NCBI GenBank assembly: GCA_029259945.1
Contig: JAJDEF010000021.1
Span: 1-64,000, forward strand
Source: Planctomycetota bacterium
GTDB lineage: Bacteria; Planctomycetota; Planctomycetia; Pirellulales; Lacipirellulaceae
DNA: 64,000 nt
Direction: 5' to 3'
A program made the position numbers and the translations under genes. The notes beneath the pieces are model-generated. The model ran no database searches. It was given only the letters and a program-made list of their open reading frames with translations, and had not been told where the DNA came from. Each line of letters begins with the position of its first letter. The stretch's first letter is position 1. Below, piece by piece: positions 15,127-44,090 of the stretch.

Positions 15127-15225
15127 ATGAAGAACCTGCAACACAGCTTTTGGAAAGGGGAGAGAGGCTCGCAAAGTCGCGATTATGACCCTGGATCGTC
15201 TTCAGGCTCATCTGACAAATGGTAG
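15127..15225 (+). CDS. Possible 32-residue small protein or leader peptide
   Basis: ATG 15127 has a TAGGAGA site six to seven bases upstream and opens a 32-codon frame ending TAG at 15225. The peptide begins MKNLQHSFWKGERG and ends GSSSGSSDKW; it is hydrophilic and has no export signal. It lies 137 bases before the PEP-CTERM gene on the same strand, so it could be a leader peptide or a small gene in the same transcript. The support is only the ribosome-binding site and position. Confidence 0.35.
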   Translation: MKNLQHSFWKGERGSQSRDYDPGSSSGSSDKW

Positions 15226-15362
15226 TCATCGATTTTTCTTATTGGAGGTGCCACATGTTTGCTTTTTTGTCCGTAACTCCCAATCACTTTACGACTTTAC
15301 GAGCCTGGAGTGTTCCAGGCAATTCCCAACGGGAAATCCCGAATAGTAATTGGAGAAATACG

Positions 15363-15959
15363 ATGAAACGAGAACTCCGTTTGGTAGTGGTGTGCGTGGC
15401 TGTAATGGTCGCTACGGCGGTCCAGGTGCAAGCGGCTCTTATCGTGACTGCCTTCGAATCTGGAGGTAACGTTGTGTTTTCTGGTGGTGGCACGGTAAGT
15501 CTTGGCGCTTTAGTTGTGGAAGCCACCGGTGTGGCTGATTCAGGACTTGTACAGCCCGCATTTGGCGTCTTCTTTTTGGGCGACAACCCTCTTGATGATG
15601 CAAAAACTTATAAGAATACCATCAGCGGGCCAAGCAACTTAGGTCCAGGTCTTGTCCATGTTTTCGCTGACTCCAACACCGGCGATTTTTTCGGCGTTAA
15701 CGCATTGTCGCCTAATCTGTATTTTCCAAATGGATTTACTACGGGGGGCAGTCTCAGCGGCACAAGCACTTACAACGGTACAACTTTGAACGCGATGGGT
15801 TTGACAGAAGGGACGTACGTTTGGAGCTGGGGTGCCGGTGCTCTTGGAGCTGCCGACACGTTAACTCTGAACGTAGACGCAAACGCGGTTCCCGAACCCA
15901 CCACACTCGCCATAGCCTTCATCGGCTTATTAGGCATCGGCTACCGTCGCCGCAAGTAG
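15363..15959 (+). CDS. PEP-CTERM sorted exported protein
   Basis: The start is ATG 15363 with GGAG close upstream. The frame is open further up to 15219 (also with ATG 15255 behind GGAGG), but only the ATG at 15363 places the signal peptide MKRELRLVVVCVAVMVATAV at the N-terminus. The 198-residue product has a beta-rich, Gly/Thr/Asn-rich middle and the sorting signal VPEPTTLAIAFIGLLGI followed by GYRRRK. It should be processed by an exosortase encoded elsewhere. The terminator at 15988 ends the unit. Confidence 0.83.
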   Translation: MKRELRLVVVCVAVMVATAVQVQAALIVTAFESGGNVVFSGGGTVSLGALVVEATGVADSGLVQPAFGVFFLGDNPLDDAKTYKNTISGPSNLGPGLVHVFADSNTGDFFGVNALSPNLYFPNGFTTGGSLSGTSTYNGTTLNAMGLTEGTYVWSWGAGALGAADTLTLNVDANAVPEPTTLAIAFIGLLGIGYRRRK

Positions 15960-16014: not shown

Positions 16015-16217
16015 TTCTTGTGCGCATTAGCTGCAATACTCTTCTATTTCGGCAGACGCCGTCCTAACTAACCCACACCCCGGCCAGCCACCGGGGAATT
16101 TTATGTGCCGTTTTCGAGTCAAAAAATGGGAACACTAATCTTTATTTGCTTTTTGTAGGATGTGCCAAAGCGTAGCGACGGCACATCGATTCGTTTTGTG
16201 TAGAATCCGATGCTACT

Positions 16218-16240
16218 CCGGCCAGGATGGCCGGGCTATG
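16218..16240. repeat. Hairpin repeat with AGGAT loop, copy 1
   Basis: CCGGCC and GGCCGG pair around the loop AGGAT and are followed by GCTATG. The CTA at 16236-16238 is the stop codon (TAG) of the minus-strand response regulator. Related copies are at 32099 and 40939; see the findings. Confidence 0.8.
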
Positions 16241-17615
16241 GATGGGCGTATTTGCCGTCTTCTAGGCCTAGTTTTTTCATCTTTTTGTAGAGCGTCGTGC
16301 GGTTGACTCCTAGTGAGTCGGCGGTGGAATTGCGGTTCCAGTTGTTCGACTCGAGCACGTCGAGGATGATTTGCCGTTCGGGCTCTTCGAGTGCTTCTTT
16401 GAGGGTCATGTTGCCCACACGCGAAATGCTGAGGCTTGGTCCGCCGACCACTTCGCGGGGTAAGTCGCCTGCTTCGATGACGTCGCTTTTGCCTAGTAGT
16501 ACGGCACGTTCGATCACGTTTTGTAGTTCGCGAATGTTGCCGGGCCAAGGATAGGCGGACAGGGCGGCAAGTGCCTCGTCGTTAAATCCATTGACGGGGC
16601 GATTGGTGTCTTCGCGAAGCTCGTCGAGGAATTTCTGGGCCAGCAACGGGACATCGCTATTGCGATTGCGGAGTGCGGGTAGCTCGACATTGATGACGTT
16701 GACGCGGTAGTACAGGTCTTGTCGGAAACGGCCTTCGGCAACGGCTTCGGCGAGGTTTTCGTTGGTGGCAAGAATAATGCGGACGTCGACCTTCAATGTC
16801 TTGGAACCGCCAACTTGTTCGAACTCTAACTCTTGAAGCACTCGTAACAGTTTGACTTGCATGGCCGGGCTGGCGGTGCCTATTTCGTCAAGGAAGATCG
16901 TGCCGCCATCGGCTTGCATGAATTTGCCGATCTTGTCGCCGGTTGCACCGGTGAACGCGCCAGCGACGTGTCCGAAGAGTTCGCTTTCGAGCAGGTTTTC
17001 GGGCAAGGCGCCACAAGCGACTTCGATAAATGGTTTGCTGGATCGGCCACTTTGGCGATGGATCGCGCGGGCGATCATCGATTTGCCGGTGCCACTTTCG
17101 CCGGTGATGAGCACGGTCGCTTTGGTGTCGGCAATGCTCTCGACCATGTCGAAAACTTTGAGCATTCGCGGATCTTGACCGACGATATTGCCGAGGGCAT
17201 AGTGTTTATCCAGTTCTTTGCGAAGCTGGGTGTTTTCTTCGAGCACTTGTTGCTGTGAGGCAACGCGCTCGATGGCGATCAACAGCTCTTCGTCGATGAG
17301 GGGCTTGGTGAGGTAATCGGCAGCACCCGCTCGCACCGCTTCGACCGCGGCATCGGCATCGCCGTAGCCGGTGATCAATATGGTTTGACTTTCGGGATAG
17401 TTGCGACGCACTTGCTCTAACAGATCGAAACCATTGCCATCCTGTAGCTGGACGTCGACCAGCAGTAGGTCGTAGTTTTTTTGGCGAAGCCTTTCGAGTG
17501 CTTCGGCGCAGCCGCTGGCAGTGTCGACCGTCAGACCTTGGCTGCGGAGCCAATCGGCCATCGATTCTAAAAGCTGTCGATCGTCGTCGACGAGCAGTAA
17601 ATTTCCCTGAATCAT
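16236..17615 (-). CDS. Sigma-54-dependent response regulator, NtrC type
   Basis: The 459-residue protein has three domains in the usual order. A receiver domain (1-118) has DDD at about 10-12, the phospho-acceptor Asp in LLLVDVQLQDG near residue 54, and Lys in LTKPL near 104. The AAA+ sigma-54 activator domain (about 145-375) shows Walker A GESGTGKS, the GAFTGA loop that contacts sigma-54, and GGTIFLDEI. A Fis-type helix-turn-helix (about 410-455) closes it. It activates sigma-54 promoters on phosphorylation; no sensor kinase gene is adjacent, so the partner is unknown. Its stop codon lies inside hairpin repeat copy 1. Confidence 0.93.
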   Translation of the reverse strand: MIQGNLLLVDDDRQLLESMADWLRSQGLTVDTASGCAEALERLRQKNYDLLLVDVQLQDGNGFDLLEQVRRNYPESQTILITGYGDADAAVEAVRAGAADYLTKPLIDEELLIAIERVASQQQVLEENTQLRKELDKHYALGNIVGQDPRMLKVFDMVESIADTKATVLITGESGTGKSMIARAIHRQSGRSSKPFIEVACGALPENLLESELFGHVAGAFTGATGDKIGKFMQADGGTIFLDEIGTASPAMQVKLLRVLQELEFEQVGGSKTLKVDVRIILATNENLAEAVAEGRFRQDLYYRVNVINVELPALRNRNSDVPLLAQKFLDELREDTNRPVNGFNDEALAALSAYPWPGNIRELQNVIERAVLLGKSDVIEAGDLPREVVGGPSLSISRVGNMTLKEALEEPERQIILDVLESNNWNRNSTADSLGVNRTTLYKKMKKLGLEDGKYAHP

Positions 17616-29558: not shown

Positions 29559-32087
29559 TTGATTGAGTGGACACGTAAAAATTCTCTGATGCCTGTTTGC
29601 AGCATCTTAGGATGTCTGTTTGTGCTGTCGATTGTCGCACCGCAGGCTTGGCGGAGTTATCGAACCAGGGCACCAGAGCCTGCAACAATCGCAGAGCCAA
29701 GTGAGACCGTGGTTGATCCGCAGACGGAGCAACCTATTCAGACACCACCCGAGGCAGCCACGGAGTCGTCGCTTCAGCCAGTTCCCGCTGTGCCAACGGC
29801 CTCGAAATCTGATTTCAGCGTTGATGTTTTGCTGCAAATGCGTGATGAGCTGAGAGGAATCGTTGGGCAACTGCCTAGTTCGGAATTACCGGTGGCTAAG
29901 CCGCAAGCGGCAGTTCAAGTGACTAGCGAAGGTGATCGCCTAGCTATGCTCACCCCAACTCGCATCGAGACTCAGCGCAGAACGCTAGCGGCTGTCCCTG
30001 TCCGCAAGCTGGTTCAAAGACAAACTCCGCCACGGGAAGCGTTGCTTCGTTTTCGGCCAACCGTTCTTTTCGATCAGCTTCAATCGCTTTCGACGCAACC
30101 TTTTGCCGCGCAATGGTCGGCGCAAGTCCACGGCGAACTAGCTCGTCTCGCTGATGATCACACGACCTCGCGATCGGAAGCATTGCCTATCATTGATACA
30201 CTAGAAGCACTTGCTGTCTCTGGTCGCGGCGAAGCCAGCAAGGCTGCCTACACCTCTGGCCGGCACCAATGGTTCCAGGCAATCCAATCTCTGGAACGGC
30301 GTCTGGCAATTTGGCGTGCGATGTTTGACCCTTCAGTGGAAACACAAAACTCGATCGTTGTAGAAAAGACGACACCGAATTTGATGGCATCGCTTAGCGA
30401 GGTAGCCGTATTACTGGGAGAAGAGTCGAACGGCGAGGCTTGGCGTGATTATTTATTGCTCGACCAACTCGCCGCCGCTACCAGCGAGGGTGCGGGCCTC
30501 GATCAGCAAGGCCGTGGCAACTTGGCCAGAAAAGTGCTGTCGCGTATGAATTCGGCGAAACTTGCAGCCGACCAAAAAGCCTTCTTGGCTACGGAGCCAC
30601 TGACAAACCTACAAATGGTCCTGCGTCCTTGGGCAGCAACAGCCGTAAATTTAGATCGACTTGTTGCTTTAGTCGAGCGCTATGAGGCGGGCCGCGAGCT
30701 TCGTTTTGCCGTGGCAATCGCACAAATACAGCACCAGCTGCACTGGTCGAATTGCGAGCAGTTGCAGAAGCTGGCAGACCACTTAGATTTGCACTATCGC
30801 GGCTCGAATCTTCGGTTGACACTCACCGAAGGTTTTATGAACCAGATGATGCCGAGGCAAAAGCCGATTGTCGCTCCGGTCAACGAACGGATCGCTGGGG
30901 CCAAAGTGCGCGGGCAATCTCGCACGACGACGAGTCTCCATGTGCGACTGATTCCCGACCCGGCCGCTTGGCGGTTCGGGCTGGAAGCTTCGGGCAAAGT
31001 TTACTCGACCACTCGATCAGAAACTTGGCCTGCGCGTGTTCGCAATGCCGCAAAAATGCAATATCAGGCGCGTAAGGTTATCACGATCAACCAACAGGGT
31101 CTTAGCACCGCGCCCACCAGGGCAAAAGCGCAAGGCCGGCATGAGTTGCTAGGGGTTGAGTCGCAATTAGATCCCGTCCCACTGCTTGGGAAAATGTTGC
31201 GAGAGATCGCTCGTTCGAAGAACAAAAAGTCGCGACCTAAAGCCATGCAGCAAGTAAAGCAAAAAGTGGTTCATCAGGCTCAAACGCGGATGGATAGTCA
31301 AGCCGATTCGAAATTCGAGGACCTCGCTCAGAAGTTTAAGGATCATGTTTTGAGTCGCATTGCGCGTTTGGCGCTTTTCGCTGAGCCACGAAGCATGTTT
31401 ACGACCGAAGAGCGAGCGGTCATGCAACTTCGCTTGGCGAACGATGGCCAACTTGCTGCCCATACCCCTCGCCCACTGGCACCTTCAGACAGCGCCGCTA
31501 GCCTGCAACTGCACGAAACCGTATTAAACAACGCCATCGCAGGCTTACAGCTCAATGGTCGCCGCATGAAGGTGACAGAACTTTTTGAATTCTTTGCCGA
31601 AAAGTTTGGGCGTGCCGATGCTCAGCCCTCTGAAGATCTTTCGCGACGTGCGGTCATTCAATTTGCCAGTCGCGATGCAATACTAGTGAATTGCGATAAT
31701 GATCGAATAGAGCTGATACTCAACATCCGAGAAGTGGCCCACGGTCGCGACAAAATCCGCAACTTCCAAGTCCACGCTTACTTTCGGCCAGTGCTAGACG
31801 GCTTCGATGTTCGTCTTGTCCGTGATGGTTCGCTGCAATTTGCCGGCCGACGCTTAAAGACAGGACCACGCATCGTCCTGCACGGCATCTTTGGCAAACT
31901 GATTGAACAGGACGCCGAAATTCGCCTGATGGCAGACGGCACGCAGCCTGATCCCCGTTTGAATGGTTTGATGGTGACTCAACTGGTGATCGACGATGGC
32001 TGGATCGGATTGGCCATTGGCCCTGCCCACCCAGACCGGACCGCTTTGCAAGCTGCCGGGCCCAGGGCAGAGGCGATGATGCGCTGA
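29559..32087 (+). CDS. Large exported or membrane-anchored protein of unknown function
   Basis: The TTG start at 29559 is preferred because a perfect GGAGGT lies eight bases upstream; the in-frame ATG at 29589 has none. The 842-residue protein has one N-terminal membrane segment (about residues 11-28), then a Pro/Glu-rich linker to about 90, and a long, mostly helical, Arg/Leu/Ala-rich region with several coiled-coil-like parts. A C-terminal domain (about 640-800) has beta strands such as AVIQFASRDAILVNCDND and FQVHAYFRPVLDGFDVRLV. No known domain is recognised. Hairpin repeat copy 2 follows after 11 bases. Confidence 0.75.
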   Translation: MIEWTRKNSLMPVCSILGCLFVLSIVAPQAWRSYRTRAPEPATIAEPSETVVDPQTEQPIQTPPEAATESSLQPVPAVPTASKSDFSVDVLLQMRDELRGIVGQLPSSELPVAKPQAAVQVTSEGDRLAMLTPTRIETQRRTLAAVPVRKLVQRQTPPREALLRFRPTVLFDQLQSLSTQPFAAQWSAQVHGELARLADDHTTSRSEALPIIDTLEALAVSGRGEASKAAYTSGRHQWFQAIQSLERRLAIWRAMFDPSVETQNSIVVEKTTPNLMASLSEVAVLLGEESNGEAWRDYLLLDQLAAATSEGAGLDQQGRGNLARKVLSRMNSAKLAADQKAFLATEPLTNLQMVLRPWAATAVNLDRLVALVERYEAGRELRFAVAIAQIQHQLHWSNCEQLQKLADHLDLHYRGSNLRLTLTEGFMNQMMPRQKPIVAPVNERIAGAKVRGQSRTTTSLHVRLIPDPAAWRFGLEASGKVYSTTRSETWPARVRNAAKMQYQARKVITINQQGLSTAPTRAKAQGRHELLGVESQLDPVPLLGKMLREIARSKNKKSRPKAMQQVKQKVVHQAQTRMDSQADSKFEDLAQKFKDHVLSRIARLALFAEPRSMFTTEERAVMQLRLANDGQLAAHTPRPLAPSDSAASLQLHETVLNNAIAGLQLNGRRMKVTELFEFFAEKFGRADAQPSEDLSRRAVIQFASRDAILVNCDNDRIELILNIREVAHGRDKIRNFQVHAYFRPVLDGFDVRLVRDGSLQFAGRRLKTGPRIVLHGIFGKLIEQDAEIRLMADGTQPDPRLNGLMVTQLVIDDGWIGLAIGPAHPDRTALQAAGPRAEAMMR

Positions 32088-32098
32088 GAAGCAGGCTT

Positions 32099-32122
32099 CC
32101 CGACCAGGATGGTCGGGCTATG
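32099..32122. repeat. Hairpin repeat with AGGAT loop, copy 2
   Basis: CCCGACC and GGTCGGG pair around AGGAT and are followed by CTATG, where CTA at 32118-32120 is the TAG stop of the minus-strand gene ending there. One stem position differs from copy 1 with a compensating partner (A-T for G-C). Confidence 0.8.
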
Positions 32123-32528
32123 AGATCGCTCTAGGGTTACTCAACAGTCCTACTGTCGCTGCGAGTAGCAAGACGGCAACCGAATGGTCAAGCCATAACA
32201 GCAAGCCGACTCGACTTGCTGGCCCGCTGATCGCCGTATGGGTTTGAGCTGCAATCGCAAAGCAAACCAGAGCAGCGTAAACCATAAGGTTCACTGCGGT
32301 TAGTCGTTGGCTACGACGACTTCCTGTCGCGAGAATCTGAGTAGCACCACAACCGACCAGCATCATGGCAGTGGCGATGGGAACCACAGTACAAAGTTGT
32401 GCCACCAACACCACGCCAAGACCCATAGCGATTAAAGCAGGGCCAACGCGAGAAGACGTTTGCAAGGAAAAGTGCCGAGGCATAGTAAGAACCAATCGAA
32501 GGAGCTGAAAAAAGAGGGCCTCCTTCAT
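32118..32528 (-). CDS. Small membrane protein of unknown function
   Basis: The 136-residue product has about four membrane segments (approximately residues 28-43, 48-63, 79-93 and 108-126). There is no motif for a named family. The ATG at 32528 is the longest choice; an in-frame ATG at 32483 is possible but has no ribosome-binding site. The stop codon is provided by hairpin repeat copy 2. It lies 46 bases downstream of ftsH on the same strand. Confidence 0.6.
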   Translation of the reverse strand: MKEALFFQLLRLVLTMPRHFSLQTSSRVGPALIAMGLGVVLVAQLCTVVPIATAMMLVGCGATQILATGSRRSQRLTAVNLMVYAALVCFAIAAQTHTAISGPASRVGLLLWLDHSVAVLLLAATVGLLSNPRAIS

Positions 32529-40328: not shown

Positions 40329-40520
40329 GGTGAGTCGAATCGTTGACGGTTGGGTTGCAGTACTGCAGTCGGCGGTCTACGACGAAAGTCGGGGGGGGCT
40401 GCTATCACCCTTCTCCAATATCCCCTCGAAAAACACTTCTATTCCAGTGTACCGATCTCACCGCGTCTCGGAATAGCACCTGGGTTGCTACGTGCGTGGA
40501 ATTGCGGTTCAATTAGCCCT

Positions 40521-40922
40521 ATGAGTGAGCCCAGCACGTTCCATCAACTATTTGCCATTGCCGCTGGCGGCAGTGTTGGTGCCCTATGTCGACACTTGGT
40601 GAATCTTGCATGTTCGCGCTGGTTTGGCAGCCACCTTGCCGTCGGCACCTTGGCCGTCAACGTGGTGGGCTGTTTTCTTGTTGGCCTGCTTATTGCGATG
40701 CGATCGACCGATTCGCCACGCTGGGACGATTTGACTCACTCGGCACTGATCGTCGGTTTTCTCGGTGCCTTTACGACTTTTTCGACTTTTGGTTTCGAGA
40801 CCACTCGATTTTTTGAGAGCGCCCAGCATGGCCTGGCGTTGCTCAACATCGGCGGCAACATGTTGCTGGGTCTTAGCGCAGTTTTTGGTGGCCTTTATCT
40901 TGGACGGGTGATGGTGGGCTAG
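40521..40922 (+). CDS. crcB: Fluoride-specific ion channel CrcB (Fluc)
   Basis: CrcB/Fluc is a dimeric fluoride exporter. The 133-residue membrane protein has four membrane segments. Key motifs are GGSVGALCRHLV near the N-terminus, GTLAVNVVGCFLVGLL with the conserved Asn, and GFLGAFTTFSTFGFET with the phenylalanine/threonine track. ATG 40521 is chosen because the upstream frame (to 40350) has no family similarity. A crcB-type fluoride riboswitch was looked for upstream and not seen. Confidence 0.93.
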   Translation: MSEPSTFHQLFAIAAGGSVGALCRHLVNLACSRWFGSHLAVGTLAVNVVGCFLVGLLIAMRSTDSPRWDDLTHSALIVGFLGAFTTFSTFGFETTRFFESAQHGLALLNIGGNMLLGLSAVFGGLYLGRVMVG

Positions 40923-40938
40923 TCGGTGTCCGATATTT

Positions 40939-40961
40939 CGGGCTAGGATGGCCCGGCTATG
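40939..40961. repeat. Hairpin repeat with AGGAT loop, copy 3
   Basis: CGGGCT and GGCCCG pair (one G-T) around AGGAT, with GCTATG afterwards; CTA at 40957-40959 is the TAG stop of the minus-strand thioesterase gene. Two or more stem pairs differ from copies 1 and 2 with compensation. It lies between convergent crcB and the thioesterase gene. Confidence 0.75.
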
Positions 40962-41418
40962 GGGACTCGCTTTGCACTACGTAGGAGCCCTTGAACGTAA
41001 CGTAGGTTCCTTGATCGTCGGCTATTTCGGCTTGGATGTCGATTTTCGACTTGCCCTTGCTACGGAGAAGCTCGAAAAAATAAGCCAACTGCTCGGGGTC
41101 GATGCACAAACCGGCTGCAACAATCTCGGGGGTTCGGACGGGCCGAAGATAACGGATTGAACCGCGTCGAATTACGATATTGCCGTATTGGCCATCGCCT
41201 TTTAGAAGCAGGAAGACGGTGCCCCACCCTACCACGGTACACAAGGCATTCAGGCTTCCGGCAAAGGCTGAATATTGGTGGTTGCGGTTCGGCGTCAGCG
41301 GCATTTTCATGGCCAGTTGCGTGCCATCCCACGACACCGTTTCAATAGCCATGGCTTTGCTGATGGGCATCTCTCGAGCGAGAGTTTCGCCTAGTTCTTC
41401 AAGAAATTGTTCGTCCAT
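40957..41418 (-). CDS. Hotdog-fold thioesterase-like protein (YiiD C-terminal type)
   Basis: The start is ATG 41418; TTG 41439 is also in frame. The 153-residue product has the motifs of the YiiD C-terminal or DUF4442-like hotdog domain: NRNHQYSAFAGSLNALCTVVGWG, then IRRGSIRYLRPVRTPEIVAA and TFKGSYVV. Such proteins act on acyl-CoA or acyl-ACP thioesters, but the substrate is unknown here. The stop codon lies in hairpin repeat copy 3. Confidence 0.8.
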   Translation of the reverse strand: MDEQFLEELGETLAREMPISKAMAIETVSWDGTQLAMKMPLTPNRNHQYSAFAGSLNALCTVVGWGTVFLLLKGDGQYGNIVIRRGSIRYLRPVRTPEIVAAGLCIDPEQLAYFFELLRSKGKSKIDIQAEIADDQGTYVTFKGSYVVQSESP

Positions 41419-41507
41419 GGAAAGCCGGTAATGTCGCAACGTTGTCTGAGATGATTTTCCCTATGCTACCTCATGGGGGCAGCCCTCACCAGCGGCTAAC
41501 GACGTGA

Positions 41508-42668: not shown

Positions 42669-43847
42669 TCAGCCGCCGCAGCAACTGCAGGCTGGAACTT
42701 CGCACTGGATTTCTTTTTCGACCATCTTGCAGACTCTGACAGGAACCTGAACCTCGACCTGAACTGGCTTGCAAACCGTATAGGTTTCGGTTCTTTCTTC
42801 AGGCACGCACTCGTAACGGCAAACCGTGTAGGTGCGAGTCTTTTCCTGCGGAACATAGACGCAGCAGGTGACTTCCTTGCTCTTCTCTTCGCACACCATG
42901 CGGCAGACCTTGTACTCGCGGGTCTTGGTGACAGGGCGGCTCTTGCAAACCTTGACCGTGTAGGTTTTTTCTTGCGGAACCATCTTGCAAACCTTGACCG
43001 TTTTCTCACGCGGCACCATCCGGCATCGGCGTACCTTTACGGTGCAAGTCTTTTCGACGGGGCGAGTTTTGCAAACCTTATAGGTGTAAGGTACTTCTTC
43101 GACTTCGCACTTGTAAGTTGTGCAGGTCACCTGTTTTTCTTCGACTGTGGGCACCCAAACCCGCTTGCAGCAGGTGCGAGTGCAATTGCCACAGCCGCCG
43201 CAACCTGATCCACAGGCGGGGACTTCAATCGTTTGCGTTTCCCAGTGGCCGCCACAAATTTTGACGGTCTTCACGGTTTCGACGGGGACACGTCTCACCA
43301 CTCGACGTGTGGCTTCGACCTCTTCGGTGTAGCGTTCGCAAACGGTGTAGGTCTTTTCAACGTCCTCGCAGTAGTATTCGCGTACTTCATAGCTGACCGT
43401 TTTTTCGGAATACTCGGGAACCATCACGGTGCAAGTACGCTCTTCTTCTTCGGTGTAGTATTCGCAGGTGGTGTACTCAGCGGTCTTGGTTTCCCAGACT
43501 GGCTTTTGCACGGTGTAGTTGACCGTCTTGGTTTGCTGTGTTGGAACCATCACCGTGTAGGTGCAGGTCTTTTCTTCTTTCACCGGTACACGATTGTAAA
43601 CGGTGTAGGTTCGCGTCTTTTCTTCTTTTTGGTATTCAGTCCGCGTGCAGGTACGCATTTCTTCGACGTATGTTGGCACCATCACCGTGCGGGTGATGGT
43701 TTTCGTCTCGCAGCCGCAAGAATCGCAACAGCTGCTGCAACTACTCTGACAACAGTTTTTCTTGAACAATCCTGCGGACACATCGTCCGAAACCCCGACG
43801 ACCAGCAACCCTAGTGCTGGCAACAAAAACAACGCGCGACGTAACAT
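42669..43847 (-). CDS. YTV-repeat, cysteine-rich envelope protein
   Basis: ATG 43847 with a GGAGG site about eight bases upstream is chosen over the longer frame. The signal peptide MLRRALFLLPALGLLVVGV is followed by AGLFKKNCC, then repeats of the type (T/R/K)TYTV, with seven YTV occurrences in 392 residues (RTYTVYN, CTYTVMVP, NYTVQKP, KTYTVCE, KTYTVKVC, RTYTVCR, ETYTVCK), and many Cys, Thr, Val and basic residues. YTV domains were first described in Rhodopirellula baltica and are linked to the planctomycete cell wall. The C-terminus is CSCCGG. Disulfide cross-linking in the envelope is inferred. Confidence 0.85.
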   Translation of the reverse strand: MLRRALFLLPALGLLVVGVSDDVSAGLFKKNCCQSSCSSCCDSCGCETKTITRTVMVPTYVEEMRTCTRTEYQKEEKTRTYTVYNRVPVKEEKTCTYTVMVPTQQTKTVNYTVQKPVWETKTAEYTTCEYYTEEEERTCTVMVPEYSEKTVSYEVREYYCEDVEKTYTVCERYTEEVEATRRVVRRVPVETVKTVKICGGHWETQTIEVPACGSGCGGCGNCTRTCCKRVWVPTVEEKQVTCTTYKCEVEEVPYTYKVCKTRPVEKTCTVKVRRCRMVPREKTVKVCKMVPQEKTYTVKVCKSRPVTKTREYKVCRMVCEEKSKEVTCCVYVPQEKTRTYTVCRYECVPEERTETYTVCKPVQVEVQVPVRVCKMVEKEIQCEVPACSCCGG

Positions 43848-44090
43848 GTGTAAGCCCTCCATCAACGTAGAAAAAATAAAAAGTGCAATTTGCAAGGCAA
43901 AAGTGACACGCTAGCAGCCCCCCCCTTGGAATTCACTCTAAGGAAGATAGGCATTCCAGTGATTCTACGCTTGACTTTCAGGATTGCAACGACATTGCGT
44001 CCCAATAGGCGTTTTTTCCAAGAAAACGATCGTCGACTGGAATATTGCTCGTTCTAGCCCCTACGTCGGAAGGGAAATAGCTCCTCGAGG

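What the first reader, a model, noticed from the sequence alone, without database searches (positions are those of the whole stretch)
16218..16240. Hairpin repeat that supplies TAG stop codons at convergent gene ends
Three copies (16218-16240, 32099-32122, 40939-40961) share loop AGGAT and tail GCTATG (copy 2: CTATG after GGG), while the stem bases change together: CCGGCC/GGCCGG, CCGACC/GGTCGG, CGGGCT/GGCCCG. Each lies between a convergent gene pair, and in all three the CTA of the tail is exactly the TAG stop codon of the minus-strand gene (16236, 32118, 40957). This points to a selected RNA or DNA structure, perhaps a bidirectional terminator or a small mobile repeat that has captured gene ends. 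Stem covariation is seen directly; the function is inferred.
Basis: partly seen in the sequence, partly recalled or inferred. Interest (0 to 1): 0.72.

Follow-up and report, generated by a model that had tools for sequence, protein, structure and literature searches.

The report
Mobile palindrome repeats that end genes
The three hairpins are copies of a small repeat of the known, probably mobile, REP kind that is scattered through this planctomycete's genome and sometimes sits on the end of a gene, where three letters of the repeat serve as that gene's stop signal.

Summary
In detail: each of the three hairpins lies between convergent genes, and its CTA is the TAG stop of the minus-strand gene. 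They belong to a dispersed family: 84 exact-pattern copies (reversed control 0) and 138 covariance-model matches in the 3.48-Mb genome. On the tag-first strand the unit is (C)ATAG-C-[7-bp stem]-TCC-[7-bp stem]-AA: a REP element (repetitive extragenic palindrome) with an ATAG tag instead of GTAG. Copies flank, and sit inside, a divergent Y1/HuH transposase gene (RAYT-like). A 44-46% identical homologue in another family is flanked by ATAG hairpins; two less similar ones by GTAG hairpins of the same geometry. Genome-wide 18 of 132 full copies supply the exact TAG stop, about 20 times the rate at neighbouring offsets; 43 of 135 lie between convergent genes. Five such gene ends looked up in 13 same-genus genomes carry no repeat in 61 of 61 loci examined; one conserved gene gained a codon before the repeat's TAG. 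T-runs are rare (3 of 132), so it is not a canonical terminator. REPs lending TAG stops are already in print; ATAG-tagged REPs were not found in the searches made.

The parts
16218..16240 (-). REP copy 1: stem 16218-16224 with 16228-16234, loop 16225-16227, tag ATAG, TAG at 16236-16238
   Evidence: (model match 16213-16246, E 4.9e-8)
32099..32122 (-). REP copy 2: stem 32100-32106 with 32110-32116 (extra pair 32099/32117), TAG at 32118-32120
   Evidence: (E 6.4e-7)
40939..40961 (-). REP copy 3: stem 40939-40945 with 40949-40955, sixth pair broken (40944/40950), TAG at 40957-40959
   Evidence: (E 2.1e-7)
16236..17615 (-). sigma-54 response regulator whose stop codon is the TAG of copy 1
   Evidence: 13 of 13 same-genus orthologous loci lack the repeat
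15219..15959 (+). convergent partner of copy 1, PEP-CTERM protein
29559..32087 (+). convergent partner of copy 2, no Pfam match
32118..32528 (-). 136-aa ORF (102 aa as called), no Pfam match, whose stop is the TAG of copy 2; weak coding score 10.1
40350..40922 (+). convergent partner of copy 3, CrcB-like protein
40957..41439 (-). YiiD_C thioesterase-like protein whose stop is the TAG of copy 3; two codons longer at the C-terminus than the G008 orthologue

Best explanation
The hairpins are REP elements: non-autonomous palindromes, very probably copied or moved as single-stranded DNA by a RAYT-like Y1/HuH tyrosine transposase. The unit is (C)ATAG-C-7 bp-TCC-7 bp-AA; ATAG takes the place of the GTAG guide/recognition tag. 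Copies settle mostly between genes. When one lands at the 3' end of a gene in the tag-first orientation with its TAG in frame, that TAG becomes the stop codon and the flanking C-rich letters become the last codons (11 of 18 such products end in proline), while the ancestral stop is lost or left downstream as noncoding DNA. Such insertions are tolerated because little of the protein changes; in the opposite orientation all three frames of the consensus are open, and the 5 copies inside genes all have that orientation. Shown: family, structure, association with the transposase gene, patchy presence, excess of exact stops, codons gained at two gene ends. Inferred: that this transposase catalyses the movement, and that the hairpin one base after the stop may slow ribosomes or protect the mRNA 3' end.
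For: Copy number: 84 exact, 138 model matches at E<=1 with 150 of 1923 candidates scored, so a lower bound. P0001 (PF01797, 37 bits over a cut-off of 23) has a REP doublet on each side (one of the four flanking copies degenerate, E 0.1) and one REP inside its frame. Homologue L107 in another family, 46% or 44% identical, is flanked by three ATAG hairpins with another loop, and its own stop codon is the TAG of one of them. Homologues L109 and L115 (31%) are flanked on both sides by GTAG-C-7bp-TYY-7bp hairpins. Patchy spread: of 13 congeners G008 has 111 model matches, two have 1-2 and ten have 0. 0 of 61 orthologous loci of five gene ends have a model match; 0 of 80 named response-regulator loci. 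E2-like gene: 11 of 11 orthologues stop right after ...LL[LM]AP, here ...LLLAPT then the TAG of the REP; thioesterase: 2 extra codons over G008. Stop excess: 18 at offset 0 against 43 spread over offsets 9-60, Poisson 2.3e-18; G008 6 against 19 over 7-60, P 2e-6. Reading frames and proline ends; in-gene orientation.
Against: The usual GTAG tag is absent (129 of 132 ATAG, 0 GTAG). P0001-like genes and the repeat do not co-occur tightly: 26 of 59 genomes (own included) have a P0001-like gene and 20 of these 26 have no model match; G014 (19 copies) and G024 (48 by pattern) have no P0001-like gene at E<=1e-4. Of 30 Y1_Tnp loci from 8 genomes only 2 hold a model match at E<=1, and 40 of 50 transposase loci hold no TAGC hairpin. 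G008's P0001-like gene (L249) has no copy beside it. P0001 is below NCBIfam's cut-offs for both REP_Tyr_transpos and IS200. In the response regulator TAG is already the stop in 8 of 13 orthologues at similar length, so there it may have pre-existed. The E2 copy is one of two with tag CTAG. Some gene ends carry copies in both species, two in the same orientation (L016/L228, L076/L214) and two in opposite ones (L042/L233, L091/L202), so some sites may be old or favoured. No near-identical genome with an empty site was at hand, so exact junctions are not seen.
Confidence: 0.86

Rival explanations
1. A bidirectional intrinsic transcription terminator kept by selection at convergent gene ends.
For: Stable hairpin (-14.4 kcal/mol in copies 1 and 2, z below -3; -8.9, z -2.1 in copy 3); own genome enriched between convergent genes and depleted between divergent ones (22 of 128 against 41% of intergenic bases in the window).
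Against: Few T-runs: TTTT after the hairpin in 3 of 132, mean T 2.0 of 12 against 2.6 expected; loop and tag conserved beyond what a terminator needs. 22 of 135 copies between divergent genes and 5 inside genes. 61 of 61 orthologous loci examined lack it; after the same response-regulator gene L164-L166 show another hairpin, with TTTT in L164 (read by eye).
Confidence: 0.06
2. The TAG is a pre-existing target: insertion happens just 3' of a TAG (as IS200/IS605 elements insert next to a target tetranucleotide), so TAG stop codons are landing sites rather than being supplied.
For: TAG is the commonest stop here (96 of 212 high-scoring genes in the loci); response-regulator orthologues end with TAG in 8 of 13.
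Against: E2-like gene: 11 of 11 orthologues stop one codon earlier, with TAA, TGA or TAG. Thioesterase two codons longer than in G008. The C-rich letters before TAG are conserved over all 132 full copies, most of them not at a stop, so TAG seems part of the repeat.
Confidence: 0.12
3. A structured regulatory RNA or attenuator family.
For: Compensatory stem changes.
Against: No Rfam match at gathering threshold in the window; present in either orientation relative to tandem genes (44 same, 19 opposite; 18 and 19 in G008); absent at the orthologous places examined.
Confidence: 0.04

Closest known systems
GTAG-tagged REP superfamily (Di Nocera et al. 2013, PMC3733652; first part, section 5 and passages seen)
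   Same: One-sided TAG tag, most stems 6-9 bp with short loops, compensatory subfamilies, many copies, intergenic and downstream of genes, RAYT-linked; [quoted passage not shown]
   Different: First tag letter is A, not G; section 5 lists GYAG, GYRG, GTRG, GTMG and GTGG variants but not ATAG
REPtron with Y1/HuH RAYT (TnpA-REP), e.g. E. coli, Stenotrophomonas, Marinomonas (PMC8266576, passages seen)
   Same: Palindrome preceded by a tetranucleotide that acts as guide, gene flanked by REPs; in Marinomonas Mb only the last two tag letters (AG) were strongly enriched with a CT site
   Different: The RAYT-like protein here is divergent (33 bits to NCBIfam REP_Tyr_transpos, cut-off 80) and its activity is untested
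Class 3 TnpA-Y1 proteins of Planctomycetes, Acidobacteria and Proteobacteria (PMC6006769, section 27 and passages seen)
   Same: Similar length (178 aa listed, 182 here), W not followed by Q or E, YV start of the Y motif, phylum, flanking hairpins in many copies
   Different: Published foot is CnGA, here ATAG; Y motif YVERHA instead of Y----Q (the G008 protein L249 has YVRDRQ); no class 3 profile was run
REP inserted in frame inside a RAYT gene (subclass 2.4, PMC6006769, passages seen)
   Different: The protein here lacks the YIxNNP motif of that subclass

Membership tests
REP element (repetitive extragenic palindrome) | Short palindrome of about 20-40 bp, high copy number, dispersed | tested here: met
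   84 exact-pattern and 138 model copies over many contigs
REP element (repetitive extragenic palindrome) | Mostly intergenic | tested here: met
   128 of 135 between called genes, 5 inside, 2 at edges
REP element (repetitive extragenic palindrome) | Association with a RAYT gene | tested here: met
   P0001 and L107 flanked by their hairpins; genome-wide co-occurrence is loose and most other Y1_Tnp loci have no copy
GTAG superfamily of REPs in the strict sense | GTAG tetranucleotide at one end | tested here: not met
   ATAG 129, CTAG 2, TTAG 1 of 132; with A or G allowed, 95 of 96 listed places in the order are ATAG (the listing is capped per genome)
Y1/HuH transposase (IS200/RAYT) | Y1_Tnp domain with HuH pair and catalytic Tyr | tested here: met
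   PF01797 37 bits over cut-off 23; H101, H103, W148, Y169 invariant in a 3-sequence alignment; weak match to solved transposase 2xm3, E 5.5e-4
RAYT proper (NCBIfam REP_Tyr_transpos) | Score over the curated cut-off | tested here: not met
   33.3 bits, cut-off 80
Mobile element | Transposition of the unit | not testable with these tools
   Presence/absence between species only; no assay
Intrinsic terminator | GC-rich hairpin followed by a T-run | tested here: not met
   3 of 132 with TTTT within 12 nt

The most novel reading that the evidence does not exclude
A divergent planctomycete RAYT lineage has shifted its guide tag from GTAG to ATAG, changing where the element can be cut and inserted, and in this genome the REP-stop fusions (18 found) have been put to use: a hairpin one base after the stop imposes control at translation termination on those genes.
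Probability: 0.12. Interest if true: 0.55.

Novelty: new variant of a known kind. Interest (0 to 1): 0.3.

Why it matters
It places a REP family with an altered tag, together with a candidate enzyme, in Pirellulales, and shows at codon level how a probably mobile repeat rewrites the ends of conserved genes. The related ATAG and GTAG sets (L033 and L107 against L109 and L115) give a natural series for testing how the tag is read. For annotation, short protein tails before TAGCCCGG (often ending in proline) are probably repeat-derived in these genomes.

Tried and rejected
Terminator reading: rejected for scarcity of T-runs. Rfam: no match at gathering threshold in the window. Plasmid collection: no match to the copy-1 region. 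Viral contigs: no exact copy of the 23-base consensus. Naming via P0001 in genome contigs: 26 stretches matched a pattern, none confirmed; the response regulator gave names instead. An orientation bias in tandem gaps (44 against 19, P 0.002) did not replicate in G008 (18 against 19) and is not claimed. The canonical RAYT in this genome (L034; NCBIfam 103.8 bits, cut-off 80) was considered as the mover; it is bounded by its own 36-nt inverted repeats, with one weak match to this repeat (E 0.25) inside a neighbouring ORF. Another perfect inverted repeat at 16160-16186 was checked: a mis-spaced pattern found nothing (uninformative), the right one found only that site in the window. Gene calls come from a home-made dicodon caller that misses some short genes, so context counts are approximate. 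The first Poisson values used backgrounds I had entered by hand (0.83 and 18/54); the G008 list holds 19, and one search gives the mended values. Rows dropped: 3 of 138 model matches with E over 0.05; 3 of 135 truncated matches left out of tag, logo and stop counts; L259, a second, 52% match in the E2 search, left out of the 61 loci; L021 and L022 (duplicates of window stretches) and L031, L032, L034 (transposase loci) left out of the context scripts; in G008 copies within about 400 bases of a stretch end.

Full report
What is there. On the tag-first strand all three read CATAG-C-stem-TCC-stem.

It is a family. The pattern CCAGGATGGNNNGGCTATG occurs 84 times in the 3.48-Mb genome, its reversed control never. 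A covariance model from 33 copies gives 138 matches at E<=1, with 150 of 1923 candidates scored, so this is a lower bound. I analysed the 135 with E<=0.05. Of the 132 full-length ones the tag is ATAG in 129, CTAG in 2, TTAG in 1 and GTAG in none. The stem covaries: 12 both-sided cells in 33 sequences, 0 of 500 shuffles as high; over 132 copies 864 Watson-Crick, 17 G-U and 43 unpaired cells of 924. The first count leans on copies found with a pattern that fixes part of the stem. Information in the alignment runs from about five bases before TAG to two or three after the hairpin, so the C-rich letters before TAG are part of the unit; the model that found the copies includes those letters.

Context. 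With a home-made gene caller, 43 of 135 copies lie between convergent genes, 63 between tandem genes, 22 between divergent genes, 5 inside genes and 2 at edges. Against 14% of intergenic bases (or 25% of gaps) in the window, convergent gaps are enriched in the own genome (P 2.6e-8 by bases, 0.02 by gaps), but in the same-genus relative G008 it is 14 of 62 against 14% of bases (P 0.07) or 21% of gaps (P 0.75). The convergent rule of the three window copies does not hold generally.

Stops. Of 86 copies with a same-strand gene ending upstream, 18 have the TAG exactly as that gene's stop; none has an offset of 1 to 8 or below 0, and no other single offset within 40 bases has more than 4. A second, regex-based count gives 18 of 85, none at 1 to 8 and one below 0; G008 gives 6 of 33, with one copy at 7. 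Poisson values against the background offsets are 2.3e-18 and 2e-6. The 18 genes have coding scores of 23.8-178.7 except the window's 136-aa ORF at 10.1, and 11 of the 18 products end in proline, 6 of them in -TP. Eight of 135 copies are both convergent and stop-supplying, three of them in this window.

Are the stops new? I compared five of the 18 stop-supplying genes with 13 same-genus genomes: the response regulator (13 loci), the thioesterase (12), and three that I recognise from their sequences as PII-like, E2-like and tRNA-synthetase-like (13, 11, 12; these names are recalled, not searched). None of these 61 loci has a model match at E<=1, nor do 80 named response-regulator loci (some are probably the same records as the unnamed ones). 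In the E2-like gene 11 of 11 orthologues stop directly after LL[LM]AP, while here one codon more leads to the TAG of the repeat, a copy whose tag is CTAG. The thioesterase is two codons longer than in G008. The response regulator has the same C-terminal length as in G008, and 8 of 13 orthologues already use TAG. So the repeat seems to have supplied the stop in two cases and the response regulator is ambiguous; the ends of the PII-like and synthetase-like genes vary too much to tell. Against a simple picture of recent gain, a comparison of REP loci of the two species (20 protein pairs, loci chosen for having copies) shows gene ends with copies in both: L016/L228 and L076/L214 in the same orientation, L042/L233 and L091/L202 in opposite ones.

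The mover. The genome has four Y1_Tnp matches. One, P0001 on contig C42, has a REP doublet on either side, inside duplicated stretches of 39 and 63 nt (85-86% alike); one of these four flanking copies is degenerate. [quoted passage not shown] Contig C42 is rich in copies, so some proximity could be chance. Its closest homologue found, L107 in another family of the order (46%, 44%), is flanked by three hairpins ATAGC-CCGACCG-TGT-CGGTCGG, and the gene's own stop is the TAG of one of them. Homologues L109 and L115 are flanked on both sides by GTAGC-7bp-TYY-7bp hairpins. TAGC hairpins occur 24 times, in 10 of the 50 transposase loci searched, against 0-7 times for ten other tetranucleotides. This ties the tag-plus-hairpin architecture to this transposase lineage and suggests G to A at the first tag letter. 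Against it: of 59 genomes (own included) 26 have a P0001-like gene and 20 of these have no model match, while G014 and G024 have the repeat without such a gene; 28 of 30 Y1_Tnp loci from eight genomes hold no copy at E<=1; G008's own P0001-like gene has none beside it; and P0001 is below NCBIfam's RAYT cut-off.

Spread. Model matches at E<=0.01 occur in 8 of 59 genomes, the own one included: heavily in G008 (111), moderately in G014 (19) and G032 (18), and 1-2 in four others (at most 119 candidates scored per genome). With a loop-free pattern 18 of 296 genomes of the order match (own included), but 14 genomes also match the reversed control once each, so only genomes with several matches count: G000 63, G008 75, G024 48, G032 66, G014 19, G202 83, G052 4, G168 3. 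Named relatives include Bythopirellula polymerisocia Pla144 (81% in the response regulator) and Pirellulales MAGs.

Literature. Di Nocera et al. 2013 (PMC3733652; first part, section 5 and passages seen) describe GTAG REPs in several phyla, Planctomycetes and R. [quoted passage not shown] PMC6006769 (section 27 and passages) describes class 3 Y1 proteins in Planctomycetes with CnGA feet and REPs inserted in frame in RAYT genes of subclass 2.4. PMC8266576 (passages) shows the tag acting in cleavage-site choice. PMC12306157 (passages) recounts that REPs within 15 nt of a stop can lower translation. PMC2817692 (passages) lists REPs beginning mostly with GTAG or GTGG. The word ATAG does not occur in the main texts of PMC3733652, PMC8266576, PMC2817692 or PMC6006769. 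Searches of the held library for ATAG with 'repetitive extragenic palindrom' (listing only), Bythopirellula with palindrom (no paper) and Planctomycetes with REP and RAYT (listing only) showed no description of ATAG REPs; figures and supplements were not seen.

Verdict. A known kind of element in an unusual form: an ATAG-tagged REP family with a divergent RAYT-like gene. The stop-codon overlap is genuine, in excess of chance, best explained by insertion at gene ends, and already known in kind.

Noticed in passing
[quoted passage not shown]
   Followed up: partly
L107:1435-1962: In another family, the RAYT-like gene's own stop codon is the TAG of its flanking ATAG hairpin.
   Followed up: partly
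L034:1379-2066 (own genome C31): A second RAYT (NCBIfam REP_Tyr_transpos 103.8 bits) bounded by 36-nt inverted repeats (94% complementary) that look unrelated to the REP.
   Followed up: partly
L249:857-2355 (G008): In G008 a Y1_Tnp gene lies directly downstream of the E2-like gene whose stop in the own genome is a REP.
   Followed up: no
own-genome loci and window: TAG is the commonest stop codon among called genes: 96 of 212 high-scoring ones in the loci, 25 of 58 in the window.
   Followed up: no
window 42669-43895: Gene with internal repeats of about 48 nt; Pfam YTV (PF07639).
   Followed up: partly
own genome C42:13250-67974: Dense cluster of REP copies around the RAYT-like gene, with four doublets that have the tags inside.
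   Followed up: partly
window 16160-16186: Another inverted repeat (ATGTGCC ... GGCACAT) about 30 bases beyond REP copy 1; only one copy in the window.
   Followed up: partly
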